Positions 37,428 through 49,273 of a DNA stretch of 64,000 nt are shown piece by piece. Position numbers and translations under genes: made by a program. The notes beneath the pieces were generated by a model. It was not told the DNA's origin, ran no database searches, and saw nothing but the letters and a program-made list of their open reading frames with translations. Within the stretch, counting starts at the first letter, position 1. Each line of letters begins with the position of its first letter. The DNA is from Pantoea allii (GTDB lineage Bacteria > Pseudomonadota > Gammaproteobacteria > Enterobacterales > Enterobacteriaceae): positions 620,001-684,000 of the forward strand of contig NZ_NTMH01000040.1 of assembly GCF_002307475.1 (NCBI RefSeq), written 5' to 3'.

Positions 37428-37909
37428 TGCCCAGCGCCATTATCACGCGAACGTCAGGTCACTCCGCGTCGTCCTGTAGTCTTTCCCATGGACGGGAAGG
37501 CATTTTTCTGTCTTGGTGCGTGCAGGCATTTACGGCTTTATTTCACGCCGAAACGGTCATTTAACGCAACAACCTTGCTCGTTAATCTGGCTATATACGG
37601 TCATTAGCGGGTAACCCTTTTTACGTTATTTTTCATCCGCTAAGCCATTCAGACGGCGCGCAAGCAACCTGTAATAACGGGCTGTTACATCTCCTGTTTT
37701 TTTAAAATATCCTTTTGGTGTGCAATTAACCTTTCTGTTAATACCGCAATATAGGCAAATTTTTACTTTCTACTCCTACTCTTGCTTGCAACTGATTGTG
37801 TTAATAATTAATGTCAGTTTAATGAACAGAGCGTAAATTAGTGAATGTTGAACATAACAAAGCAGAGGAGCCACTTACACAGGACGTGGTGAAAGTCGAG
37901 GAGGTCGCA
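37428..37909. other. chaB-chaC intergenic region
   Basis: About 480 bases without a supported gene. The end includes an in-frame but poorly supported GTG-started extension of chaC from 37841. AT-rich from 37680, suggesting a separate chaC promoter, unlike a tight chaBC operon. Confidence 0.45.
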
Positions 37910-38584
37910 TTGCTAACCCGGGAATTCTTATTAAAAGCGGATTGTAAAACATCATTTGGTGATATTGAGGAGACACTCCTGTGGAGTTGTGAACAGCGCG
38001 CGGCATCGCTGGCGGCAACCCTGGCCTGTCGGCCCGATCACAGCCCGGTATGGATCTTCGGCTACGGTTCTCTGATGTGGAATCCTGTTTTTGAAGCTGA
38101 TGAAGTTGCGTCGGCGTCGCTGGACGGCTGGCATCGCGCCTTTTGCTTACGCCTGACTGCCGGGCGCGGCACGGCTTCGCATCCGGGACGTATGCTGGCG
38201 TTGAAAGAGGGCGGTATTACCCGCGGGCTGGCGTTTCGCCTGCCGGAAGAACGTCTGCATGACGAACTGGAACTGCTGTGGAAACGTGAAATGATCACCG
38301 GATGCTATTTGCCTACCTGGTGTGAGCTGACGCTGGAAGACGGACGTCGCGTTTCTGCCCTGGTGTTTATTATGGACCCCCGCCATCCGCTGTATGAGGA
38401 TGATACCTGCCCGCAGGCGGTTGCGCCGTTAATTGCTGCGGCGACCGGGCCGCTGGGTTCGAATGCCCAGTATCTCTTCTCGCTGGAAGAAGAGCTGACC
38501 AAACGCGGAATGGAAGAGGACGATCTGATCCGCCTGGCGCATCAGGTACGTGCGCTGCAACAAGACTGGCTGAAGCAGGCCTGA
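37910..38584 (+). CDS. chaC: Glutathione-specific gamma-glutamylcyclotransferase ChaC
   Basis: Cleaves glutathione to 5-oxoproline and Cys-Gly. The 224-residue protein shows WIFGYGSLMWNP (the Y-G-S-L signature loop), HRAFCLRLTAGRGT, LWKREMITGCYLP and the catalytic Glu region LLWKRE. The start chosen is TTG 37910, because GAGGAGG stands five bases before it and the resulting MLTREFLLKADCKT aligns with E. coli MITRDFLMNADCKT. An upstream GTG (37841) would add 23 unmatched residues. Confidence 0.93.
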   Translation: MLTREFLLKADCKTSFGDIEETLLWSCEQRAASLAATLACRPDHSPVWIFGYGSLMWNPVFEADEVASASLDGWHRAFCLRLTAGRGTASHPGRMLALKEGGITRGLAFRLPEERLHDELELLWKREMITGCYLPTWCELTLEDGRRVSALVFIMDPRHPLYEDDTCPQAVAPLIAAATGPLGSNAQYLFSLEEELTKRGMEEDDLIRLAHQVRALQQDWLKQA

Positions 38585-38613: not shown

Positions 38614-40023
38614 TTAATTGGTGGGATTAATCAGCCAGGTGCCGGGTTTATCAATCAGAAGTGACTGACTGCGAAGCCGGTTCCCGGCCCGCACGTCAAT
38701 ACGGTACTGCCCGGCGGCCAGATTCAACACCGCAAAACCGTTGCTGCTGGCATGCACCGCAACGGGCTGACCGTTCAGCACCACCTGTTCGTCGCTGGTG
38801 AGCTTAAGATAGACCATCGCCAGACCGGCGGGTACCGTGCCGGTAGCCGGTAACGACGCATGGCTCTTATCGACGAGCGAAGCAGCAGGCGTACGCGTAT
38901 TCTCAATCCAGACTACTACCGCCACCGCAATCATCGCGACGCCAGCCAGCGCCAGTAATCCCGGCGACAGGAGACGTACGTTGCGTCCGGTTAACGGCTC
39001 GGCCATCGTGGCACCGTGATTCATGGCTAACACGACCGGCGGCACGGTCTCGGCTGACGCGGCGTCGCTGATAGACTGCTCATCATTACGCTGTTGCAGG
39101 CTGTTCACCACCGCCTCAACGTCGCTGACGGGCAAATCAATCAGCGCGGCAAACTCATCAATGTTCTGCGGGCGATCGTGGGGCCTCATCGTCAGCGCGC
39201 AGTCAATCGCGTGCAGCAGCGGCAGCGAGTAGCCCTGCGGTTTACGTGCCACCAGCGGTTGGTAATTATCTTCAATGCAGCGCACCACGCTGACCGGCGG
39301 CGGAGAGCCTGTAATCAACGTATGCAACACGGCGCCCAGCGCATAAATGTCCGTCCACGGACCCTGTTCACTTTCGCCTTCTTCACTGTACTGCTCAATG
39401 GGCGCAAAACCCGGTTTGAGCATGATTTCAGTTTCGTCGGAAAGGTTGCCAATCTCTTTACGGGCGGAGCCAAAGTCGAGCAGCACCGGCAGCTGATTTT
39501 CCTGAATCTGGATGTTATCCAGCGAGATATCCCGATGCAGGTAGCCCGCCTGATGAATGGTGTTGATAGCGCCTAACAGCGGCGGCAGCAGACGACGTAT
39601 CCAGGCTTCTGAAATCGCCTCATGGCTGGTGACCTGCCACTCTTTTAACGTCATGCCGTTGTAGTAGAGCGTGCCCATGTAGGCAGTGCCGTTCTGTTCC
39701 CAGAAGCGCAGGACGTGAAGTAAACCAGGATGGTTAAAACGCGCCAACAGTCGGGCTTCCTGAATAAAGCTGTTCAGGCCCGCGTTAAACAGCTTTTGAA
39801 ACCGTTCACCGCGCAGCGCCAGTGATAAGTCTTCGGTTCTTACCGCCAGCGACACCGGCATGTACTCTTTAATCGCAATCGTGCGTTCGAGTTGGTGATC
39901 CCATGCGCGGTAGACAATGCCGAAACCGCCGCCGCCAATCACCTCTTTAATTTCGAACTCGTTAAAACGATATCCGTCAGGCAAGGCATTCGGTATTGTT
40001 TTCTGACTGTCATTTGCCGACAT
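38614..40023 (-). CDS. ppkA: T6SS-associated Ser/Thr protein kinase (PpkA/Stk1-like)
   Basis: A 469-residue kinase. The cytoplasmic Hanks-type domain spans about residues 20-300: glycine loop IGGGGFGIVYRAWD, Lys in IAIKEY, catalytic HRDISLDN, DFGSAR and PWTDIYALGAVLHTLITG. One membrane helix follows (LSPGLLALAGVAMIAVAVVVWI, about 352-373), then a roughly 95-residue periplasmic PEGA-like region (YLKLTSDEQVVLNGQPV). All catalytic residues are present. With the PP2C phosphatase and FHA protein upstream it forms the threonine-phosphorylation switch known from Pseudomonas H1-T6SS. Last gene of the leftward cluster. Confidence 0.88.
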   Translation of the reverse strand: MSANDSQKTIPNALPDGYRFNEFEIKEVIGGGGFGIVYRAWDHQLERTIAIKEYMPVSLAVRTEDLSLALRGERFQKLFNAGLNSFIQEARLLARFNHPGLLHVLRFWEQNGTAYMGTLYYNGMTLKEWQVTSHEAISEAWIRRLLPPLLGAINTIHQAGYLHRDISLDNIQIQENQLPVLLDFGSARKEIGNLSDETEIMLKPGFAPIEQYSEEGESEQGPWTDIYALGAVLHTLITGSPPPVSVVRCIEDNYQPLVARKPQGYSLPLLHAIDCALTMRPHDRPQNIDEFAALIDLPVSDVEAVVNSLQQRNDEQSISDAASAETVPPVVLAMNHGATMAEPLTGRNVRLLSPGLLALAGVAMIAVAVVVWIENTRTPAASLVDKSHASLPATGTVPAGLAMVYLKLTSDEQVVLNGQPVAVHASSNGFAVLNLAAGQYRIDVRAGNRLRSQSLLIDKPGTWLINPTN

Positions 40024-40067
40024 AATAGACTCTCTGAACGGGGCCTGCTTGTCAGGCTACGCGGTAA

Positions 40068-41021
40068 TTAATGGATGTTACGCCATGCACCTTCAGCAGG
40101 ATCGACCCGATCCGCGCGTAAGGCGTCGACAAGTAACACATTCACTTTTTGCGACGATGTCATACCGGTCGCCCAGCGGCTGCGCAGGGCAGTAATGCGC
40201 GAGGTCAGCGCGCTGGCATTCTGCTGTGCCGCCGTTTTATCGGCTTTGATCAATAAGGTTCCGTCAAAACGCCACAGATGCTGCTGTACATCAAAGGGCA
40301 AGACCATCCAGCTGTCTGGCGCATCGGAACGGGCCAGAATCATGCGCTGGTTATTGACGTCCACAATTTGCAGATGCTGGTCGGATAGCGTCAGGTTGGC
40401 AATGGGATAGCCCTGATAAAAGCTGATCGCAAGCGTCTGTGGTTGCGCGCTACCGCTCAGGGTTATGTCACTTTTACCTTCCAGCCAGCCCTCGGCGGAG
40501 CACTGCTGTTTACCGATGTCAGGCACAAACATGGCCAGCCCACGCGCGTCCCAGGCCGTGCGAAAACGGCAGCCGTTTGGTAAGGCGAAATGCTGCAGCG
40601 GCGTGCCGTCTGCCGGACGCGACAGGCTGGGCGAGACCGCACTCTGTGCCGGGGCAGTGGCTTTGGCATCGGTATTCACAATCAGTCGCCAGTTTTGCAA
40701 TTTGCTGGCGCTGCCGCTGGCCAGCACGTGGCCCTCGCTATTGGTCATTTGCCAGGGCAGCACGTCCAGATCGTTACACTGATTGGCTAACAGCGTGCCC
40801 ACGCGCGGCAAAAACGTTTTTAAAACCTCAGCATCCTGACCTTTACCCGACACAATACGCAGCGGCAGTGTTTCCTGGCACCACTCATCCGGCGTTTTGC
40901 CCGCAACGTTGTCGATATACACTTCCAGTTCAAGACTGGGTGAATACACCACGCGATAATTTTCCGCCTGCGCAGTAAAGGCCATAAACAACGTGGCTAT
41001 AGCGGGCAACCACAATTTCAT
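40068..41021 (-). CDS. Periplasmic protein of the T6SS-like cluster, unknown function
   Basis: A 317-residue exported protein (signal peptide MKLWLPAIATLFMAFTAQA/EN). It has four to five cysteines in pairs (DEWCQETL / NQCNDLD and NGCRFRTAW / KQQCSAEG), which suggests two disulfides. The second half contains repeated beta-like stretches (TLAISFYQGYPIANLTLSDQHLQIVDVNN). AAAGGAATTCT precedes the start. Placed between the phosphatase and kinase genes, it may sense or transmit a periplasmic signal to the kinase, as TagQRST do elsewhere, but I recognise no family. Confidence 0.6.
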   Translation of the reverse strand: MKLWLPAIATLFMAFTAQAENYRVVYSPSLELEVYIDNVAGKTPDEWCQETLPLRIVSGKGQDAEVLKTFLPRVGTLLANQCNDLDVLPWQMTNSEGHVLASGSASKLQNWRLIVNTDAKATAPAQSAVSPSLSRPADGTPLQHFALPNGCRFRTAWDARGLAMFVPDIGKQQCSAEGWLEGKSDITLSGSAQPQTLAISFYQGYPIANLTLSDQHLQIVDVNNQRMILARSDAPDSWMVLPFDVQQHLWRFDGTLLIKADKTAAQQNASALTSRITALRSRWATGMTSSQKVNVLLVDALRADRVDPAEGAWRNIH

Positions 41022-41034
41022 AGAATTCCTTTAA

Positions 41035-41811
41035 TCAATAACCTGATGGCAGAAAACGCGCTGAATCGGCCAGCGTATAAAGCAGGGTGGCATCTTGCGG
41101 CTCACCAATCCATACGGCCAGTGCGCTAAGGTTGTCTTTCTTTACGTCGCGGCTCACCGCCTGTTCCATTAACATCAGCCACTCGTCACAGGCATTCACC
41201 ATGCGCAGCGCCTGCTCCATTTCCGTGGTGGTCAGGTTGAGCCAGAAACCGTCGCTACAGACTAAAAACGCATCGCCATCTTCCAGCATGATTTCTTCTG
41301 AGAAGCTCACCGGATGGGCAGGTTCTATGCCGAGCGCATTATAGAGTAAATTACTGTTAATTCCGGTATTTTCATAGCCCGCATCGCTTAACTTTTGCGC
41401 CAGACTGTGGTCACGCGTGACCTCATTCAGCACCCCGTGACGGAAGTGATAAACCCTGCTGTCACCCGCGTGCGCCCACCATGCGCGCTGTCGCGTACGG
41501 TCGATAAACAGGCCTGCCAGCGTGGTGCACATGGTGGAAAAATTCGGATTATTACCCTGGGCTATTTCAAGTAATGATCGGCACTTTTCAACCGCCTGCC
41601 GGGTAAGGGCTGGCGTCACCTGGTCGCAGGTGAGTAATTGTTCAATCAGAACATCGCACACCAGCTGCGCCGCCTGGTCGCCGCCGGGCAAGCCAGCCAC
41701 GCCGTCGCACACCACAAAGCAGGCTTTGCGTTCATCCACTATGACGCCGGTTCGATCCTGATTCTCAGCGCGCAGCCCCTGCTGATACTGACTGGCAAAG
41801 GCGATATTCAT
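41035..41811 (-). CDS. pppA: T6SS-associated PP2C-type phosphatase (PppA/Stp1-like)
   Basis: A 258-residue protein phosphatase of the metal-dependent PPM family. The motifs appear in order: RAENQDRTG, FVVCDGVAGLPGG, WAHAGDSRVYHF, FLVCSDGFWLNL and KKDNLSALAV, giving the full set of metal-binding aspartates. It should reverse PpkA phosphorylation of the FHA protein. It overlaps the upstream FHA gene by four bases (ATGA). Confidence 0.9.
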   Translation of the reverse strand: MNIAFASQYQQGLRAENQDRTGVIVDERKACFVVCDGVAGLPGGDQAAQLVCDVLIEQLLTCDQVTPALTRQAVEKCRSLLEIAQGNNPNFSTMCTTLAGLFIDRTRQRAWWAHAGDSRVYHFRHGVLNEVTRDHSLAQKLSDAGYENTGINSNLLYNALGIEPAHPVSFSEEIMLEDGDAFLVCSDGFWLNLTTTEMEQALRMVNACDEWLMLMEQAVSRDVKKDNLSALAVWIGEPQDATLLYTLADSARFLPSGY

Positions 41812-42935
41812 GCGTCATCCGTGCGCGTCTGTGAGTCTTTGTACTGATTCACTTCCATGTCATAGGCATGAAGAAAGGCTTCCCCAAACAGCGTGTGGAA
41901 ATCGTCTTCGATTTCCCCGGCGGTACGCTGGTAGCGGCGGGTAAAATAGTCCCACAGGGCAGCTTTTTTAAAGGGGGAAAAGGGGGTTTTCGACACCGCG
42001 CCGTCCGCGCGTGCCTGTTCTTCCAGCCCCTGAGGATTAAACGACTGCAGCATCGCGGCGATAATCGCGCGGATTCCGGCAATCATGCCCAACTGATGCG
42101 CCTGCAGATCGACCAACGCATCGCGCACGGCCTGTTCGGGCTGCATAAAGCCCGGCATCTGGCTTTGATACATCTGCATCAAGACGGTTTTGCCTGAGGG
42201 GAGAATTTTGAAGGGATTGTTGGCCTCGTTCAGGATCATCGTCATTTCGGCTTTGACGCCACGTTTCAGAATGGAACGCGACGACAGCAGGGCAACCGTA
42301 CCTTGAGAGAACAGGCTTAGCATCCGGCCTGTAGTGCGCATTTGCTCTTCGCTGATCACCGTACTGTGGCCGTTTTTCAGCCCCATTCCGTCCAGCAGCG
42401 CCGCCACCAGCTTGTCCTGATCCAGCCCGGCGGCAAAGGGCGCATGAAAAGTTTCGCTAATCTGGGGATCGATCGCCAGCCTGGCGTCGCCGCGACGTTC
42501 AGGACGCTTCGGTACAGGCTCTTCCGTGACTTCCTCTACCTCCGCATGCTCGGGAATATCCAGCGGATTGCTACGTGTGGCGGCATGGGAAAAAAACGCC
42601 AGAGGATCGCTGTTCACGCCGTGATACGCCGGATCGCGCACGTCGATGGCGTAGTCACCAATGCGCAGGGCGTCACCGTGCTTGAGGTGCACCTGCATGC
42701 CGCGCTTAAGCGGCACACCGTTGTGTTCGACAGGCGTAACGCTGCCCTGATTGGTCAAACGGCATTCGCCTTCGCCTGACAGGTGCACCAGCGCCTGCAG
42801 ACGCGAAATAGAACGGGCTTCATCCGGTAACACCAGGTCGTTATCCTGGCTGCGGCCAATGGTGCCGCCCGGCGGATGAAAGGTGACGGTTTTCACCGGA
42901 ATATCAGACGTGCATTGTACGATGGTAAATTGCAT
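41808..42935 (-). CDS. tagH: T6SS-associated FHA-domain protein (TagH/Fha)
   Basis: A 375-residue protein with an N-terminal FHA phosphothreonine-binding domain (GGTIGRSQDNDLVLPDEARSISRLQALV, about residues 24-95) and a C-terminal TagH-type domain (VRDALVDLQAHQLGMIAGIRAIIAAMLQSFNPQGLEE). The usual His after the Ser-Arg of the FHA loop is Gln here. It is the expected target of the PpkA/PppA pair and in other systems licenses T6SS assembly. Confidence 0.88.
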   Translation of the reverse strand: MQFTIVQCTSDIPVKTVTFHPPGGTIGRSQDNDLVLPDEARSISRLQALVHLSGEGECRLTNQGSVTPVEHNGVPLKRGMQVHLKHGDALRIGDYAIDVRDPAYHGVNSDPLAFFSHAATRSNPLDIPEHAEVEEVTEEPVPKRPERRGDARLAIDPQISETFHAPFAAGLDQDKLVAALLDGMGLKNGHSTVISEEQMRTTGRMLSLFSQGTVALLSSRSILKRGVKAEMTMILNEANNPFKILPSGKTVLMQMYQSQMPGFMQPEQAVRDALVDLQAHQLGMIAGIRAIIAAMLQSFNPQGLEEQARADGAVSKTPFSPFKKAALWDYFTRRYQRTAGEIEDDFHTLFGEAFLHAYDMEVNQYKDSQTRTDDA

Positions 42936-42969
42936 GAGTTATCCCGTCATGGAGGACAGTAGCAACGCC

Positions 42970-43668
42970 TCACTCAAACATCGGTGGATAGAGGCCATTG
43001 CGTCCCGGCTGTGCACCTGCCGCCGGATTAAACAGTAATGAGAACAGTTCCGCTGTGAGGTTGCCGCTATGCTTGTGTGTGGCATGAACGAAACCGTCAC
43101 TGCGATTGCTCCACCAGTAACTAATGTGTTGCTGAGGGTCGAAACGTTCGGCGACTTCCTGCCAGCTCAGGGTGCAAGGCAAATCGTGGAAACCGATTAC
43201 ATCCATAATATCGGAGTGCTGCTGTACCGGGATCATCAGCGGCGTCAGCGCCTGAATCTGCTGCTCCAGCTGGGCCGGCGTAAGGCGCTGCGTCACGGCG
43301 CTCAGCAGCGTGGCACCCAGTTCCTGAAACCAGTCGCCAGAGATGGTCAGCTGCGCCGGATGCCACTGGGCCAGGGGAAAGCTCAGCAGCGCCAGCAGCG
43401 GCCAGGCGCGTCCTACCCGATCGCAGGAGGGCAGCAGACAACCCATCTGCACCTGATTGCGGGTTGGGGTGATCGGTAATACGAAATTCCATACCGGCGC
43501 GCGTAAAAAGTCGGCATTGACCGCACCGTCCTGGTGATGCCAGTGCACCAGGCCTTGCTGAAACCAGTGGTTCCAGGGGGCAATAAGCTGCTCGGTTAAC
43601 CGATGATGCAAAAAGTCCCCCGTCGAGGGCAATTTGCCGTACCAGCCAGGGGCCAGAGATGCAGGCAT
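42970..43668 (-). CDS. tagF: T6SS-associated protein TagF
   Basis: A 232-residue protein recognised by the N-terminal WYGKLPSTGDFLHHRL and FLRAPVWNFVLP segments of TagF, which in Pseudomonas is a post-translational repressor of T6SS that binds the FHA protein. Start ATG 43668 (after GAGGTGAAC) is used rather than GTG 43674. It lies 13 bases after the tssM stop. Confidence 0.9.
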   Translation of the reverse strand: MPASLAPGWYGKLPSTGDFLHHRLTEQLIAPWNHWFQQGLVHWHHQDGAVNADFLRAPVWNFVLPITPTRNQVQMGCLLPSCDRVGRAWPLLALLSFPLAQWHPAQLTISGDWFQELGATLLSAVTQRLTPAQLEQQIQALTPLMIPVQQHSDIMDVIGFHDLPCTLSWQEVAERFDPQQHISYWWSNRSDGFVHATHKHSGNLTAELFSLLFNPAAGAQPGRNGLYPPMFE

Positions 43669-43681
43669 GTTCACCTCGCCA

Positions 43682-45790
43682 TTATGGGTTATGCGTCGTC
43701 AGGCGCTGTGCTTTACGGGGCGCGACGGCCAGCAGGGTATTGCTGTCACCTGCATGGTTTAAATTATCAGCCAGCTTGCCCAACATCAGCGCGTTATCGC
43801 GCGCATAAGGCGAAGACTGAATTTGCTGATCCAGCAACTGACTCAAATGCCAGTCCAGCTGCTGCAAATCACGGGCGCTGACCTTATCCGGTAACGAACG
43901 CTGCAGATTCTGCAGCAGCCAGGCGCGGAGAAATTCCCCATCATAATTTCGTGGCTGGTACAGCATCTGATAGGCCCGCAGCGCGTTACGGCTGTATTCG
44001 TTATCATCACCTGGGTCGTTACGCAGCAGGTTGGTGATCTGCTGGGCAACGCGCGGCAGTAATAAAGACTTAAGCGCATTTTGATAAAGCGCCCAGGCGG
44101 CATCGCTGACCTGATTTCCCCGGTATAACCCCGCTCGCATAGTAAACGGCGGATTATCGAGAGAAAACTGATCGGACACAGGCAACTTCACCAGGTTATT
44201 CAGAAAGGGTAGCAGATCAAAAATATTATCAGCAGGCTGATGTATCACCTGCTGACTTTGTTGTGAGATAACCGGCATTCGTGCCGAAACCTGCTGCAGA
44301 TAATGTTGGTTTTGATAGTAGCTCACCAACCATAACCCACTCATGATCACCAGCGCACCGGCCAGCATGCCGTAGCCAATCCAGTGTAAAAGCTGATTAC
44401 GGTATTCCCAGCGGCGGTTGCTGCCCGCCAGGCCGCTCTCTTTAAACACCAGATTACTCAGCAGATCGCGAATAAAAAAGCTCTGGCCTTTATTGCCGGG
44501 AATGGGGCTGTTGCGGTTAACGCGATCCCAGGCGGCAATAGAATGGGAACCGGCCTGGCGCAGCTGCAGTTTGCGGCTCAACTCGCCCATGACACGGTCA
44601 AAAGGTAATCCTTCCTGAGTGCCGCTGGTAAAAAACAGGCCGCGCGGATTCCAGGCAACGGTGTCAGCACGCTGAGAAAACACGATATCCAGATATTCGC
44701 TGAGCAGCGGGCGCAGAGACGAGAACTCCTGCGGAAACAGGAAACACTCTGCCCGCTCATTCAGATCGCGCTCGTGGGTCATCTGATCGGCAAGCTGCAA
44801 CTGAAGCTTCTGGGCTAACTGCGTAAACTGCAGGTCAAAATGCGGATGCCAGTCCTGCTTATTCGGCTTGCCGGCGTCCCAGGGGAAGGTGAACCCCCAG
44901 ATAGCATCGCGTCGGGCTTTATCCAGCGTGCCGAAGTAGCTCATGAAGCCTTTCAGCAGGTCGGTTTTGGTCAGCATGATATACACGGGGAAGTGAATGC
45001 CGGTGTGCTGATGCAGTTCGGTCAGGCGTTCGCGCAGGGCGTTGGCCTGCTCAAAACGCGCCTCGGCGGAATCGCTCAGCAAATCTGCCACGCTGATGGT
45101 CATGATGACGCCATTAATCGGCTGCCGGGCACGATAGCGCTTCAGCAAATTAATAAAGCTCTGCCACTCACTGGCGTCGCGGGCGCGCTGGCTTTCCTGA
45201 AGCGCATAGCGCCCGGCGGTATCGATCAGTACAGCACTGTCGGTAAACCACCAGTCGCAATGACGTGTGCCGCCGACGCCGCGCACCGCCTCGTGACCAA
45301 AGGTATCGGTAAGAGGGAACTTCAGTCCGGCATTCAGCAGCGCGGTGGTTTTACCGGCACCGGGCGCGCCAATCATCAGGTACCAGGGCAACTGGTAGAG
45401 ATAGTTGGCATTGATGCGTGCCCACAGGCTGCCCTGACGGCGACCAAAATGGGTGCGTTTCAGGCGCATGGCCGCGTCGCTGAAACGCTGGCTCAGCAGC
45501 GCTTCAGTCGCCTGACGCTCGGCGGGATCGTCGCTTTCTACGACTTGCAGCCGATCCAGAAGACGGCTGTTATACCAGGCACGGTAAACCGCAGGGATCA
45601 GCTGAAGCACGATCCAAAGCAGATAAAGGGTGCTCACCGCGATCTCGCGGTGCAGGGCTGGCTCAAGCGGGCGGGTTTCATCCCATGCAATAAGCGGCCC
45701 CAGCATCCACAGCAGGCAACTCAGTGCCGTGACGCCAATAAAGCTCCACAGCAGCCGATGCGTTAAAAATAAGCGAAATGAAGCGCGCAT
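43682..45790 (-). CDS. tssM: T6SS inner-membrane core protein TssM/IcmF, C-terminally short
   Basis: A 702-residue protein; complete TssM proteins have about 1100-1200. Two N-terminal membrane helices, a P-loop GTPase-like domain (Walker A MIGAPGAGKTTALLNAG, VLIDTAGRY, LTKTDLL) and a third helix near 450 (GMLAGALVIMSGLWLVSYY) are followed by only about 230 periplasmic residues. The usual C-terminal TssM domain that contacts TssJ is missing. The end runs straight into tagF without debris, so the short form may be the normal product of this locus. TGATG couples it to tssL. Confidence 0.88.
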   Translation of the reverse strand: MRASFRLFLTHRLLWSFIGVTALSCLLWMLGPLIAWDETRPLEPALHREIAVSTLYLLWIVLQLIPAVYRAWYNSRLLDRLQVVESDDPAERQATEALLSQRFSDAAMRLKRTHFGRRQGSLWARINANYLYQLPWYLMIGAPGAGKTTALLNAGLKFPLTDTFGHEAVRGVGGTRHCDWWFTDSAVLIDTAGRYALQESQRARDASEWQSFINLLKRYRARQPINGVIMTISVADLLSDSAEARFEQANALRERLTELHQHTGIHFPVYIMLTKTDLLKGFMSYFGTLDKARRDAIWGFTFPWDAGKPNKQDWHPHFDLQFTQLAQKLQLQLADQMTHERDLNERAECFLFPQEFSSLRPLLSEYLDIVFSQRADTVAWNPRGLFFTSGTQEGLPFDRVMGELSRKLQLRQAGSHSIAAWDRVNRNSPIPGNKGQSFFIRDLLSNLVFKESGLAGSNRRWEYRNQLLHWIGYGMLAGALVIMSGLWLVSYYQNQHYLQQVSARMPVISQQSQQVIHQPADNIFDLLPFLNNLVKLPVSDQFSLDNPPFTMRAGLYRGNQVSDAAWALYQNALKSLLLPRVAQQITNLLRNDPGDDNEYSRNALRAYQMLYQPRNYDGEFLRAWLLQNLQRSLPDKVSARDLQQLDWHLSQLLDQQIQSSPYARDNALMLGKLADNLNHAGDSNTLLAVAPRKAQRLTTHNP

Positions 45791-47007
45791 CAGTGTGTTC
45801 CTTGGTGAGTGCTCAGTGTTTCAGGTGCGGCAAACAGCGTGATTTCAACCCGTCGGTTACGGGTTCGGTTTTCGCTGCTGTCGTTGGGCAGCAGGGGATC
45901 GCTGTCACCGCGTCCTTCCGAGCGGATCACATGCGCATCGGCAAGCTGAACCTGAAGCAGCTGGCTGACGGCACGCGCCCGGGCAAAAGAAAATTCGTAG
46001 CTGGAGGCAAAACGGCTGCCGTCCACGGGTTTATCATCGGTAAACACCGACACCAGAATCGTGCCCTTAACATCTTTCATCGCGCTGGAGACCCGCGCCA
46101 GAATGGCCCGGCCCACCGGATTGATCACCGTGCCTTGCTCGGCAAACAGCTTGTCCGCAGGAATAATGACCTTGCTGCCAAAGGCACCGTCACTGACTTC
46201 CAGTTGGCCGGCGGCGATCACATCATTGAGCCGCTGGCGCAAATCGAGCAGGGCCTGAGGCGAAGAAGGGCGGCGATTTACCGTGATTTGCGGCAACGGC
46301 ATGTTATACAGGCTGCGCAGCAGCGGCTCGGCCGCATTGCCCAGCCGCCAGTTTAGCCCGCTGTAAATCAGGCAGCCAATCAGGGCGACGAGCATTGCAC
46401 AGGCCCAGAGCGGCACCATCGGACGTGCAAGCGTGCTGACCAGTGGATGCACCTGCACCAGCGGAGGGGAATCGGTGCTCTGCTGGGCGCGGGTTTCATC
46501 GATCAGGACTTTTAACCGTGCCCGCAGGCTGTCGCACTGTGCCCGGCCTTTTTCACTGCCCCGGTAGCGACCTTCGTAACCTAATAACAGGCAGTAATGA
46601 ATGATTTCCAGCAGCCAGAGATGCTGCTGCGGGCTTTGCGAGATACGGGACAGCAGCTGAAAGAATTTTTCACCACCCCAGCTTTCATTGTGAAACGTAA
46701 CCAGCATGCCGTTTCCGGACCAGACGCCGCGCGTGCCCCAGGGCGTTTGCGCGGCGGCCTCATCCAGAGCGCTGCAGATGCAGTAACGCGCACCAATGAT
46801 CATTTCAAACGGCAGGCCCGCCTGCTTACAGCGTTGCTCAAATACGCGCACCTCATCCATCAGCGACTGACGTAAACCCGCGGGGTCGTCATGAGTGGCG
46901 GCCTGACGAATTTGCACCACCGCATTCAGCAGTGGCGCGGCAGCGTTAAGTAAAAGATTTTCGGTACCCGAGGTCGTAACCTCTCGCGGTGATGATTCCA
47001 CTCTCAT
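45790..47007 (-). CDS. tssL: T6SS membrane protein TssL with OmpA domain
   Basis: A 405-residue fusion. The N-terminal DotU domain (about 20-200: LRQSLMDEVRVFEQRCKQ, ICSALDEAAAQTPWG, FFQLLSRISQ, YCLLLGYEGRYRG) is followed by one membrane helix (VPLWACAMLVALIGCLIYSGL) and an OmpA-like peptidoglycan-binding domain (about 280-395: ILVSVFTDDKPVDGS, FARARAVSQLL, GRGDSDPLLPND, NRTRNRRVEITLF). Usual for extended TssL. First core gene of the leftward operon after the SH3 lipoprotein. Confidence 0.93.
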   Translation of the reverse strand: MRVESSPREVTTSGTENLLLNAAAPLLNAVVQIRQAATHDDPAGLRQSLMDEVRVFEQRCKQAGLPFEMIIGARYCICSALDEAAAQTPWGTRGVWSGNGMLVTFHNESWGGEKFFQLLSRISQSPQQHLWLLEIIHYCLLLGYEGRYRGSEKGRAQCDSLRARLKVLIDETRAQQSTDSPPLVQVHPLVSTLARPMVPLWACAMLVALIGCLIYSGLNWRLGNAAEPLLRSLYNMPLPQITVNRRPSSPQALLDLRQRLNDVIAAGQLEVSDGAFGSKVIIPADKLFAEQGTVINPVGRAILARVSSAMKDVKGTILVSVFTDDKPVDGSRFASSYEFSFARARAVSQLLQVQLADAHVIRSEGRGDSDPLLPNDSSENRTRNRRVEITLFAAPETLSTHQGTH

Positions 47008-47077
47008 TACTGTGTGTTTTTCCCGCGACAGGTAGCGTTTCTGGCAGAGTGCCCAGCACGGCAGGTGTTAAATTTCA

Positions 47078-47569
47078 TTAGTTCAGAATCCAGGTCGCCG
47101 TCGCGGTATTACGGCAGGCTTTGCTGTCGCCCCCGACGTCAACGCACACTTGTTTCGTTTTCCGCGGACGCGGACGGTCATTGCGTAAGGTGTCATCGTA
47201 ACGATGCGTTTCCACGCCCGCCTTTAACGGCACGTAACCGGTTAACATCCCGTCCGGTTTATCGGCAATGGCCAGCCAGTGGTTCTCGACGCTGCCGAGG
47301 ACCTCAAAAGGTTTTCCAGCCTCAAGATAACGGACGACCTTGCCGCCGTAGTCGGGTTGGGTCATCACCGACGCGTTATACAGGGCGCGCCAGGTTTGAT
47401 TGACGGGCGTAAAGGTTGTCGGGGCAGCTACCGCATGGCGGTGTACCAGCTTCACGCCTTGAATATCACTGGTGACCAGCGTGTCATCATTCACCGAGGG
47501 CGGTGGCGTTTTGCAGCCGGACAATAACAGTCCCACTGACAGGATAAACGCTAAATTATTTTTCACCAT
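47078..47569 (-). CDS. SH3-domain lipoprotein of the T6SS-like cluster
   Basis: A 163-residue precursor with signal peptide and lipobox (MVKNNLAFILSVGLLLSGC/KTPP), no Asp at +2, so an outer-membrane lipoprotein. It has a bacterial SH3-like stretch (ASVMTQPDYGGKVVRYLEAGKPFEVLGSVENHWLAIADKPDGMLTGYVP) that could bind cell-wall glycan or a partner, and two C-terminal cysteines. It stands where tssJ would be but does not resemble TssJ. Start ATG 47569 follows GAGGAAA; GTG 47578 is an alternative. Confidence 0.75.
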   Translation of the reverse strand: MVKNNLAFILSVGLLLSGCKTPPPSVNDDTLVTSDIQGVKLVHRHAVAAPTTFTPVNQTWRALYNASVMTQPDYGGKVVRYLEAGKPFEVLGSVENHWLAIADKPDGMLTGYVPLKAGVETHRYDDTLRNDRPRPRKTKQVCVDVGGDSKACRNTATATWILN

Positions 47570-48049
47570 TTTCCTCACGATATTATCAATATACCTGCAT
47601 GTTGTTCATCAGAACACGACCGTTCACCTTCACGGGGGAAGCGCAAAAGGGTAGGCAAGCCGGTAAGATAAACGGGCAAATGACATTCATCCTGTACCGC
47701 GCTCAGTCTACCTAAGACTTTTGAGAATTCAAACCATTGCACCCAATGATATAGCATGGTAATGCGCGTTCATCATCTTCTTATCCCACCGCCCTGATGC
47801 GCCGGTTCCGCCGCCCCTGAATCGCAGAGAAAGCGGACGCTGTCAGGGCCGCCTGACAAGCCGGTTGCATAATGTCACATTCAGATGACAGGCAAAAAAA
47901 GAGTAAGCGTTCTTAACGACTTAATGGCACGCAATGCCTGGCCGGTAATGAAAACGGTCATTGTTTACGCGTCACAATCTTTAGGGACGGTGAACCGGAA
48001 GCGGCATGGCTTTTGCTTTATTCTTTTTTTGCATTGAGAGAGATGAGCA
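47570..48049. other. Divergent intergenic region between the T6SS-like cluster and nasR
   Basis: 480 bases without a supported gene on either strand. It contains the promoters of both units. A stretch at 48002-48017 has the GG-N10-GC spacing of a sigma-54 promoter (CGGCATGGCTTTTGCT) about 35 bases before nasR; the -24 box is imperfect. Confidence 0.5.
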
Positions 48050-49273
48050 ATGGATGACGCACTGAGCTGGTTGCAGGCCTCACGGCAAAGCGATATCGCC
48101 AGTCTGGAGCGACTTCGCCAGACCGGTAAATTAATTACCACGGTGAGTGAATTAGTTCATCAGCTACAGCGCGAACGCGGTGCCAGCAACCTGTGGATTT
48201 GCTCACAGGGGCGGCTGTATGGCGAGGAGCGTGAGGCGAGTGAACAGGATGTCAGCCGCAGTCAGCTTGCCTTTTGTCAGGCACTACCCAGGGCGGAGGC
48301 ACAGCCGGGATACAGCCGGTTCTGCAACCTGATAGCCGCCGCCTTGCAGGCACTGGCAGAATTGCCCGCGCTGCGCCAGCAGATCGCTGGCCTTAAGATT
48401 ACCCACGCGCAGGCCATGATGGCGTTTAGCCCGGTTATCCGAAGTTTGCTCAATCTGGTCTTTGAAGCCGCCGACACATCCAGCCACCCGGAAATTACCC
48501 GGGCACTCATTGCCCTGTTTAGCTTTATGCAGGGCAAGGAGTTGACCGGACAGGAGCGGGCACAGGGTGCCGCCGGATTTGCGGCCGGGCAGTTTAGTGC
48601 CGAACAGCGCAGTACGATGGTGGCATTAATCGAAGCGCAGGAACAAAACTTCAAAACCTTTCAGCAGTTTGCGGATGAGGCGGTGCTTCTCAGCTGGCAG
48701 CCTCTGGCCCAGCCAGGTCGGGAAATCGAACGGCTACGGCGCATCGCCTGCACCGATGGCAGACGCGACGACAGCGGTGCACTGCACTGGTTCTCACTGC
48801 TTTCGGAGCGCCTCGATCAGATGAAGTCGCTGGAGGATCAACTCTCTGCCGTGCTGATGTCGCGCTGCCGTGACGCTATCGCCCTGGCACAGCATCAGGC
48901 CGGTGAACCCTTAAGTGTGGCGCAGTCAGGCTGCAATTTTACCCTCTATGTCTCAGGCGCAGACTGGCTGGAGAATCAGCCTGCTGCCCTCAACAGCGAG
49001 GGCCTCGCTCCCCAGCTCGGGCGATCGTTACTGTCGTTGATTGGTGAACAGTCCCAACGTCTGCAGCGCCAGGCTAACGAGCTGGCCGCGATGCGCGCCA
49101 CGCTGGAAGAGCGCAAGCTACTCGACCAGGCTAAAAACTGGTTAATGCAGCAGCATGGCCTGAGTGAAGAAAACGCGTGGCAAATGCTGCGCAAAAGCGC
49201 GATGGACCAGAACAAACGCTTACCGGAAATCGCCCAGGCGATCGTAACGGTTGCCGCCACGGTGAAGCGCTAA
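48050..49273 (+). CDS. nasR: Nitrate-responsive antitermination protein NasR
   Basis: Binds nitrate/nitrite and then the nasF leader RNA, preventing premature termination. The 407-residue protein has an N-terminal NIT sensor domain (about 35-290; VSELVHQLQRERGASNLW is its helix with the ligand Arg residues) and a C-terminal ANTAR RNA-binding domain (about 340-400; LDQAKNWLMQQHGLSEENAWQMLRKSAMDQNKRL). It sits immediately upstream of its target operon, which carries an ANTAR-type double hairpin at 49430-49475. Confidence 0.93.
   Translation: MDDALSWLQASRQSDIASLERLRQTGKLITTVSELVHQLQRERGASNLWICSQGRLYGEEREASEQDVSRSQLAFCQALPRAEAQPGYSRFCNLIAAALQALAELPALRQQIAGLKITHAQAMMAFSPVIRSLLNLVFEAADTSSHPEITRALIALFSFMQGKELTGQERAQGAAGFAAGQFSAEQRSTMVALIEAQEQNFKTFQQFADEAVLLSWQPLAQPGREIERLRRIACTDGRRDDSGALHWFSLLSERLDQMKSLEDQLSAVLMSRCRDAIALAQHQAGEPLSVAQSGCNFTLYVSGADWLENQPAALNSEGLAPQLGRSLLSLIGEQSQRLQRQANELAAMRATLEERKLLDQAKNWLMQQHGLSEENAWQMLRKSAMDQNKRLPEIAQAIVTVAATVKR

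What the first reader, a model, noticed from the sequence alone, without database searches (positions are those of the whole stretch)
38614..47578. Type VI 'control and membrane' module without any secretion machinery
Eight leftward genes encode a lipoprotein, TssL, short TssM, TagF, FHA, PP2C, a periplasmic unknown and a kinase, i.e. the complete threonine-phosphorylation switch and part of the membrane complex. There is no TssA-K, Hcp, VgrG or ClpV between chaC and nasR. All genes are intact with tight coupling, which argues for selection. I recall that reduced T6SS loci occur in Pantoea and Erwinia, but their function is not established. It could regulate a full T6SS elsewhere or be an envelope-stress signalling system derived from T6SS.
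Basis: partly seen in the sequence, partly recalled or inferred. Interest (0 to 1): 0.66.

Follow-up and report, generated by a model that had tools for sequence, protein, structure and literature searches.

The report
Type VI control module without weapon
Eight genes descended from a bacterial poison-injecting machine keep only its sensing switch and part of its inner-membrane anchor; they are kept intact in most relatives, even some without any such machine, so they look like a cell-envelope sensor put to a new use rather than a broken weapon.

Summary
Window 38614-47578 (-) holds tagV, tssL(+OmpA), a 702-aa tssM lacking its C-terminal part, tagF, fha, pppA, rtkS, ppkA between chaC and nasR, and no other T6SS gene. 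The cluster is published as Pantoea/Erwinia 'T6SS-2' (PMC3235180) or 'PA T6SS-3' (PMC3942780), role unknown. It is not a split T6SS: T6SS-1 elsewhere in this genome has its own copy of all eight. New here: the 'periplasmic unknown' is RtkS, the PpkA activator. The module is one old clade in 8 genera, in 57 of 61 congeners, under purifying selection, and kept in 5 genomes without TssC, TssK or TssF (two clean cases). Other lineages separately cut a T6SS down, the smallest form being TagV-RtkS-PpkA, whose PpkA is a full-length, conserved pseudokinase. TagV and RtkS coincide in 103 of 392 family genomes. Best reading: an envelope sensor (TagV-RtkS-PpkA) that switches Fha and an inner-membrane TssL/TssM complex, detached from secretion; output unknown.

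The parts
47078..47578 (-). tagV homologue: SH3b lipoprotein, lipobox LSGC, +2 Lys (outer-membrane type by the +2 rule as stated in PMC7614798); GTG start as listed, an ATG 9 bases downstream
   Evidence: NF041850 E 1e-56, 191 bits under a 300-bit cut-off; SH3_3 below its cut-off; T6SS-1 paralogue 41%; lipobox Cys and +2 Lys in 54 of 54 aligned rows (2 of 56 rows dropped as broken)
45790..47007 (-). tssL2: DotU domain + C-terminal OmpA-type peptidoglycan-binding domain
   Evidence: PF09850 E 4e-63, PF00691 E 4e-7; 51% to T6SS-1 TssL
43682..45790 (-). tssM2: truncated TssM (702 aa against 1208), NTPase motifs intact, C-terminal periplasmic/TssJ-binding part absent
   Evidence: TIGR03348 positions 1-629 of 1168; T6SS-1 paralogue 1208 aa, 54% over its first 677; Walker A GAPGAGKTT in 55 of 55 rows; 701-706 aa in 52 of 55
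42970..43674 (-). tagF2
   Evidence: PF09867 E 4e-37
41808..42935 (-). fha2: FHA + T6SS_FHA_C, central linker shorter than in T6SS-1 Fha (375 against 634 aa)
   Evidence: PF20232 E 1e-47, PF00498 E 4e-10; lengths; Thr of A(D/E)(M/L)TMI near residue 232 in 55 of 55 rows
41035..41811 (-). pppA2: PP2C phosphatase
   Evidence: PF13672 E 8e-13; CDG and GDSR motifs in 56 of 56 rows
   Evidence: AlphaFold model pLDDT 86 matches the RtkS chain of RtkS-PpkA crystal 9k1u, Z 24.9, rmsd 1.7, 183 residues; family profile to 9k0l E 3e-63
38614..40023 (-). ppkA2: Ser/Thr kinase with a C-terminal RtkS-binding periplasmic domain (the single membrane span near residues 350-372 is my reading of the sequence)
   Evidence: PF00069 E 1e-24; last 98 residues to the PpkA chain of 9k1u E 1e-18; all kinase motifs in 53 of 53 rows (3 of 56 rows dropped)
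37841..38584 (+). chaC, conserved flank (not part of the module)
   Evidence: PF04752; found in 54 of 55 same-genus loci
48050..49273 (+). nasR (NIT-ANTAR), flank (not part of the module)
   Evidence: PF08376, PF03861; found in 40 of 55 same-genus loci; the other 15 hold only 2.2-3.2 kb beyond tagV

Best explanation
The locus is a T6SS-derived envelope-sensing phosphorelay that can no longer fire. Inferred mechanism: the lipoprotein TagV and periplasmic RtkS report the state of the envelope to the periplasmic domain of the inner-membrane kinase PpkA; PpkA phosphorylates Fha and PppA reverses this; phospho-Fha overcomes TagF and drives clustering of a TssL-TssM inner-membrane complex anchored to peptidoglycan by TssL's OmpA domain. 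With no TssJ, no TssJ-binding part of TssM, no baseplate, sheath, tube or spike, the output cannot be secretion by this locus; it is more likely a local envelope response or a relay to an unknown target. Shown here: gene content, motif integrity, family membership of RtkS and of PpkA's periplasmic domain, purifying selection, retention without T6SS. Taken from work on Serratia (PMC6082577, passages): RtkS binds, stabilises and activates PpkA; phospho-Fha against TagF. Inferred: TagV as part of the input, the signal, the output.
For: 57 of 61 congeners keep it, 54 of 55 loci next to chaC. Five module genomes have no TssC, TssK or TssF; G008 and G048 are clean cases with all eight frames whole. 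26 of 57 have no second RtkS. dN/dS of module genes 0.01-0.23 in 9 pairs (one value 0.32), near the flanks' 0.01-0.16, also in pairs with T6SS-less G008, G011, G048. PpkA motifs in 53 of 53 rows, PppA CDG/GDSR in 56 of 56, TssM Walker A in 55 of 55. The residual TssM stub (491-702) is better kept than the rest of TssM (83% against 75%). RtkS and PpkA's periplasmic domain match the two chains of one crystallised complex. TagV and RtkS coincide: both in 103 of 392 genomes, one alone in 1 and 1. Reduced T6SS loci of other lineages keep TagV, RtkS and PpkA in 40 of 41 loci found by RtkS.
Against: No output or phenotype is known. A TagV pulldown in Serratia found no partner (PMC7614798, passages), so TagV in the sensor is unproven. 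One 8-gene relative (L165) lacks tagV and G011's tagV is broken. Erwinia amylovora/pyrifoliae are reported with four genes, no kinase or phosphatase, and further decay (PMC3235180, passages), so the sensor arm is dispensable there. G039 (T6SS-less) and G002 have a broken tssM2. One PppA row of 56 has EHAD for ENQD and one a damaged end. Loci were found by RtkS, so forms without it were missed. TagV-RtkS co-occurrence is partly shared descent of one T6SS type.
Confidence: 0.58

Rival explanations
1. Trans-acting regulator or spare part of a full T6SS in the same cell: the paralogous PpkA/Fha/TagF or the short TssM mixes with T6SS-1 proteins, for example as a short TssM beside the long one.
For: 51 of 61 congeners have a TssC, and every one of these has the module; T6SS-1 paralogues are 35-65% identical over the aligned parts. 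The Citrobacter rodentium T6SS needs both a short and a full TssM (PMC4256274, abstract and passages).
Against: 26 of 57 module genomes lack a second RtkS; 5 lack TssC, TssK and TssF, with selection not visibly relaxed. The module clade holds 8 genera and stands apart from T6SS-1.
Confidence: 0.22
2. A structural envelope element: TssL/TssM and TagV tether membranes and peptidoglycan, and the kinase arm only tunes it.
For: The 3-gene relatives keep TagV-RtkS-PpkA with a dead kinase under strong selection (dN/dS 0.04-0.12 in the dead domain), so a non-catalytic role exists in this family.
Against: In the module itself the kinase motifs are invariant and the phosphatase and FHA motifs nearly so.
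Confidence: 0.09
3. A non-functional remnant of a T6SS (the published suggestion 'partial and potentially non-functional').
For: Internal deletions; decay reported in Erwinia (PMC3235180), remnants in G055, absence in three reduced genomes of 1.4-2.9 Mb.
Against: All eight frames whole in 48 of 55 same-genus loci, dN/dS mostly under 0.2, invariant catalytic motifs, one clade across 8 genera.
Confidence: 0.06
4. A split T6SS: this locus supplies the membrane complex or the switch to core genes at another place.
For: Other T6SS genes are present in the genome; the second set, on C53, was not checked for completeness and its TssF may lie on C9.
Against: T6SS-1 on C9 has its own tssJ, K, L, M, tagF, fha, pppA, rtkS, ppkA, tagV. 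Module TssM lacks the TssJ-binding part.
Confidence: 0.05

Closest known systems
Pantoea/Erwinia 'T6SS-2' locus (De Maayer 2011, PMC3235180) = 'PA T6SS-3' of P. ananatis (PMC3942780)
   Same: The same cluster by description: 8 syntenous genes in Pantoea and E. billingiae, about 52% identity to T6SS-1 paralogues, called partial and potentially non-functional; conservation already noted as a sign of selection (PMC3942780).
   Different: PMC3235180 suggests a partial duplication of T6SS-1; here RtkS and TssM trees put it in its own clade across 8 genera. Retention without any T6SS and the RtkS/TagV identities are not in the passages read.
TPP-TagF switch with RtkS of Serratia marcescens T6SS (PMC6082577)
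   Same: PpkA, PppA, Fha, TagF and RtkS; fha-pppA-rtkS order; RtkS-PpkA structural pair (PDB 9k1u).
   Different: There it controls firing of a complete T6SS; here no machine is attached.
TagV of S. marcescens (PMC7614798)
   Same: SH3b lipoprotein family.
   Different: There an accessory of an assembled T6SS, no partner found; here it travels with RtkS-PpkA without a machine.
Zorya ZorB / MotB-type OmpA proteins
   Same: TssL2's OmpA domain matches ZorB3 (E 9e-16).
   Different: A shared domain only; no ZorA-type partner was looked for.

Membership tests
Functional type VI secretion system | 13 core genes tssA-M at the locus | tested here: not met
   Only tssL and a truncated tssM
Functional type VI secretion system | TssJ and the TssM C-terminal domain that binds it | tested here: not met
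   No TssJ; TssM ends at profile position 629 of 1168; TssJ binding by the last 150 residues from PMC4256274
Pantoea/Erwinia reduced locus T6SS-2 | Eight syntenous genes including icmF, FHA, kinase, phosphatase | tested here: met
   against the description in PMC3235180 and PMC3942780 (passages); no named reference locus was compared
Threonine phosphorylation pathway (PpkA-PppA-Fha) | Catalytic motifs of kinase and phosphatase, FHA domain | tested here: met
Threonine phosphorylation pathway (PpkA-PppA-Fha) | Phospho-Thr site in Fha | tested here: inconclusive
   Invariant Thr near residue 232; equivalence to Serratia Thr438 not shown
RtkS | Sequence and fold of the PpkA-binding domain | tested here: met
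   E 3e-63 to 9k0l; Z 24.9 to 9k1u_A
RtkS | Binding to and stabilisation of PpkA | not testable with these tools
   Supported only by homology of both partners
TagV (NF041850) | Match over the curated cut-off | tested here: not met
   191 against 300 bits, E 1e-56; only 9 of 392 family genomes reach that cut-off; I call it a TagV homologue
TagV (NF041850) | Lipobox with a +2 residue other than Asp | tested here: met
   L-x-x-C-K in 54 of 54 rows

The most novel reading that the evidence does not exclude
TagV-RtkS-PpkA is a self-standing trans-envelope receptor that T6SSs use as their input arm and that evolution has repeatedly cut free of the weapon. In one branch (the window's) it still drives a full phospho-switch on an inner-membrane TssL/TssM complex; in another (Buttiauxella, Cedecea, Dryocola, Siccibacter and others) it has become a three-gene receptor whose kinase is a conserved pseudokinase acting as a scaffold. 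TagV, thought to be an accessory of the assembled machine, would then be the outer-membrane end of the sensor.
Probability: 0.4. Interest if true: 0.75.

Novelty: new variant of a known kind. Interest (0 to 1): 0.58.

Why it matters
It would show that a contractile weapon's regulatory arm can live on as a cell-envelope sensor, explain a cluster described since 2011 as a partial T6SS, and warn that counting TssL/TssM/Fha hits overcounts secretion systems. It makes the open question of the RtkS/PpkA input signal testable in organisms where no firing machine confuses the readout, and predicts a TagV-RtkS link for which I saw no direct test in the passages read (the Serratia pulldown with TagV found no partner at all).

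Tried and rejected
Split T6SS: rejected for T6SS-1 after its genes were read. Recent duplication of the Pantoea T6SS-1: not supported by the trees ('quick' trees, several long branches). Anti-phage defence: of 7 module proteins given to PADLOC (TagF left out), PpkA2 and PppA2 hit generic kinase/phosphatase models (PD-T4-6, mad6, PDC-M21C), TssL2 hits ZorB by its OmpA domain, and RtkS, Fha2, TssM2, TagV hit nothing. phmmer of TssM2 and of T6SS-1 TssM against PDB gave no hit at 1e-3, so the cut point was placed by the NCBIfam profile and the paralogue. A promoter scan found 4 sites against 4.9 in shuffles, a terminator scan 14 against 10.6. The fold of the RtkS N-terminal domain stayed open: weak rows only, Z 5.5 and below, among them pilotins AspS/EpsS. 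G025 was dropped from the T6SS-less list because it has a TssF. Flanks of the Buttiauxella triad were not found beside the triads of other genera, nor of two Buttiauxella (L188, L189), so no single insertion site is claimed. 'Kinase dead only where Fha is lost' has an exception each way: L143 (no Fha found, motifs intact) and L170 (Fha present, HLD and DPG); the 3-gene loci are one clade, so it counts as about one event. Paper searches on pseudokinase with T6SS, RtkS, Buttiauxella with T6SS terms and incomplete/orphan T6SS parts showed no report of the triad in the rows listed; one search was swamped by receptor tyrosine kinases, lists are cut at 12-20 rows, and only open-licence PMC papers are held. 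The second structure job was not used.
Full report
What is there. Between chaC and nasR the minus strand carries eight tightly packed genes, in transcription order tagV, tssL, tssM, tagF, fha, pppA, rtkS, ppkA; neighbours overlap by up to 4 bases or lie up to 70 apart. Pfam and NCBIfam support seven of the names; the 317-aa protein had no hit. TssM is 702 aa and covers TIGR03348 positions 1-629 of 1168. TssL carries an OmpA domain.

The unknown periplasmic protein is RtkS. An AlphaFold model (mean pLDDT 86, pTM 0.60) matches the RtkS chain of the RtkS-PpkA crystal complex 9k1u (Z 24.9, rmsd 1.7 over 183 residues, model residues 133-317; Foldseek E 1e-17), and the family profile finds the same deposited sequence at E 3e-63. 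The last 98 residues of PpkA2 find the PpkA chain of the same crystal at E 1e-18. The lipoprotein is a TagV homologue (E 1e-56, below the curated cut-off). So input (RtkS), kinase, phosphatase, FHA reader, TagF brake and a truncated TssLM complex are all present, as in the Serratia switch (PMC6082577, passages read).

Relation to the full system. T6SS-1 on contig C9 has a paralogue of each of the eight genes at 35-65% identity over the aligned parts and the rest of the core: tssC, tssK, hcp, tssF, tssA, B, E, G, J, clpV and a vgrG that runs off the contig end. The module's gene order is that of T6SS-1 with blocks removed: tssJ-tssK; tssA-tssB-tssC-hcp; tagJ-tssE-tssF-tssG-clpV; and the vgrG side. 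The C-terminal part of TssM and most of the Fha linker are gone too. It is therefore not a split T6SS-1. A second TssC/TssK set lies on C53; 2.1 kb of it is 87% identical to Pantoea ananatis plasmid tssB-tssC-tssK. I did not check that set for completeness. The genus is inferred to be Pantoea from this and from the published locus; the window's record is unnamed.

Spread and integrity. Of 61 same-genus genomes (window's own included), 57 carry the module (RtkS at 53% identity or more; TssM2 at 70% or more). The others are G013, G040, G051 (2.4, 2.9, 1.4 Mb; no match) and G055 (broken pieces). I examined 55 same-genus loci; of the 57, G007 is split over two contigs (L125, L126) and G038 was not fetched. 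chaC is beside the module in 54 of 55, nasR in 40; the other 15 stretches reach only 2.2-3.2 kb beyond tagV. All eight frames are whole in 48. The seven others: L069 (tagV broken), L071 (ppkA cut by the contig end, pppA altered), L074 (ppkA in two frames), L078 and L083 (tssM in two), L086 (many, with chaC and nasR broken too, so perhaps sequencing errors), L116 (tssL in two). TssM2 is 701-706 aa in 52 of 55 rows; the others are 608 (broken), 695 and 696, so the short form is ancestral to the genus.

Selection. Pairwise dN/dS (Nei-Gojobori, 9 pairs chosen by me) is 0.01-0.23 for module genes, with one value of 0.32 (pppA, the altered copy of G025), against 0.01-0.16 for chaC and nasR; some pairs have dS near or above 1. 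Kinase motifs are invariant in 53 of 53 rows (3 of 56 dropped), PppA CDG and GDSR in 56 of 56 (one row has EHAD for ENQD, one a damaged end), TssM Walker A and DTAGRY in 55 of 55.

Independence from secretion. TssC is found in 51 of 61 congeners, all of which have the module. Six module genomes lack it: G007, G008, G011, G025, G039, G048. G025 has a TssF and was dropped. The other five also lack TssK and TssF; Hcp is seen in G008 (5) and G011 (1 fragment) and not in G007, G039, G048. Of the five, G008 and G048 (99% complete) have all eight frames whole; G007 is 91% complete and split over contigs, G011 has a broken tagV, G039 a split tssM. So two clean cases and three with reservations. 26 of 57 module genomes show one RtkS only, that is no T6SS-1 of the RtkS kind; in G035, one of the 26, T6SS-1 genes are present in a draft of 240 contigs, so its second RtkS may just be missing.

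Age. Trees of RtkS (106 rows) and TssM (33 rows) make the 8-gene module one clade with 99% SH-aLRT, holding eight genera and standing apart from the T6SS-1 of the same genomes. These are quick trees with some long branches. They do not fit a recent copy of the Pantoea T6SS-1, although PMC3235180 read its IcmF tree as a partial duplication.

A wider series of cut-down loci. Loci with T6SS core genes beside RtkS: 30 and 29. Eight-gene form: 7 and 0 (one, L165, without tagV). TagV-Fha-PppA-RtkS-PpkA: 1 and 0 (L172, between chaC and nasR like the window's). An odd locus L143 (TagV, TssJ, PppA, RtkS, TagJ, PpkA): 1 and 0. TagV-Fha-RtkS-PpkA: 2 and 1. TagV-RtkS-PpkA alone: 8 and 21. TagV, RtkS and PpkA are all kept in 40 of the 41 reduced loci; RtkS was the bait, so only TagV and PpkA are informative, and the loci are not independent. 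On the RtkS tree well supported branches force at least 4 changes between the full and the reduced labels, so reduction most likely happened several times. In the family, TagV and RtkS occur together in 103 of 392 genomes, RtkS alone in 1 (G440, 73% complete), TagV alone in 1 (a 22-residue match); TssC in 231; RtkS without TssC in 4 (G079, G337, G411, G486). Part of this is shared descent of one T6SS type.

The three-gene form has a dead kinase. In all 29 such loci (28, L182) PpkA has lost the Gly-rich loop, the catalytic Lys and the catalytic Asn, and the DFG Asp in all but L162, while staying full length. In the genus of G079, which is Buttiauxella agrestis by its contig, the triad is in 12 of 12 genomes, two of which (G079, G157) have no TssC. 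The dead kinase domain is under purifying selection (dN/dS 0.04-0.12 in 8 pairs, several with dS above 1), more so than the rest of PpkA in 7 of 8 pairs. The seven eight-gene loci outside the fetched same-genus set have intact motifs. Exceptions: L170 (Fha kept, HLD and DPG) and L143 (no Fha found, motifs intact). The three-gene loci form one clade (99%), so this is about one evolutionary event.

How it most likely works. TagV-RtkS-PpkA senses the envelope; PpkA and PppA set Fha phosphorylation; phospho-Fha against TagF sets the state of a TssL-TssM inner-membrane complex held to peptidoglycan. The steps from RtkS to PpkA and from Fha to TagF and the membrane complex are taken from Serratia (PMC6082577, passages); TagV as part of the input is my inference, and the Serratia pulldown with TagV found no partner (PMC7614798, passages). 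The output is unknown. Against a general need for the sensor arm, Erwinia amylovora and relatives are reported with four genes, no kinase or phosphatase, and further decay (PMC3235180, passages).

What was known. The cluster was described in 2011 and 2014 (passages of PMC3235180 and PMC3942780 read) as partial and of unknown role, with conservation noted; PMC5561584 (abstract and passages) left it out of its mutants and cites another Erwinia mutant study that I did not read. I saw no functional test of this cluster in the rows listed (listings only). New here, as far as these searches go, are the RtkS identity of this copy, retention without T6SS, age, selection, and the series ending in the pseudokinase triad.

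Noticed in passing
L123:9449-12380 and L180-L198: TagV-RtkS-PpkA triads with a conserved pseudokinase in Buttiauxella, Cedecea, Dryocola, Siccibacter and others, with no other T6SS gene found in the few kb held on either side.
   Followed up: yes
L196 (CACSKA010000003.1): A record titled Chryseobacterium carries a triad that clusters with the one from Citrobacter sp. 18056; looks like a mislabelled or contaminated assembly.
   Followed up: no
G000 contigs C9:424014-425753, C14:3849-4037, C53: A second TssF near the end of C9 and a TssF fragment on C14, away from the TssC/TssK set on C53; the second T6SS may be broken over contigs.
   Followed up: no
G000 C9, C28, C29, C30, C45, C53: Eight Hcp matches in the genome, several away from the TssC places; the C29 and C30 copies score identically.
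   Followed up: no
window RtkS residues 20-122 against 123-317: The RtkS N-terminal domain, outside the part matched in the crystals, is better conserved in the genus (75%) than the rest (58%): perhaps a second, unknown partner.
   Followed up: partly
plasmids NZ_CP117576.1 (Escherichia albertii), NZ_CP104760.1 (Pantoea piersonii): RtkS homologues on plasmids, annotated hypothetical; context not read.
   Followed up: no
L143 (G077:C1): What looks like a decaying T6SS remnant with TagV, TssJ, PppA, RtkS, TagJ and PpkA but no Fha found.
   Followed up: no
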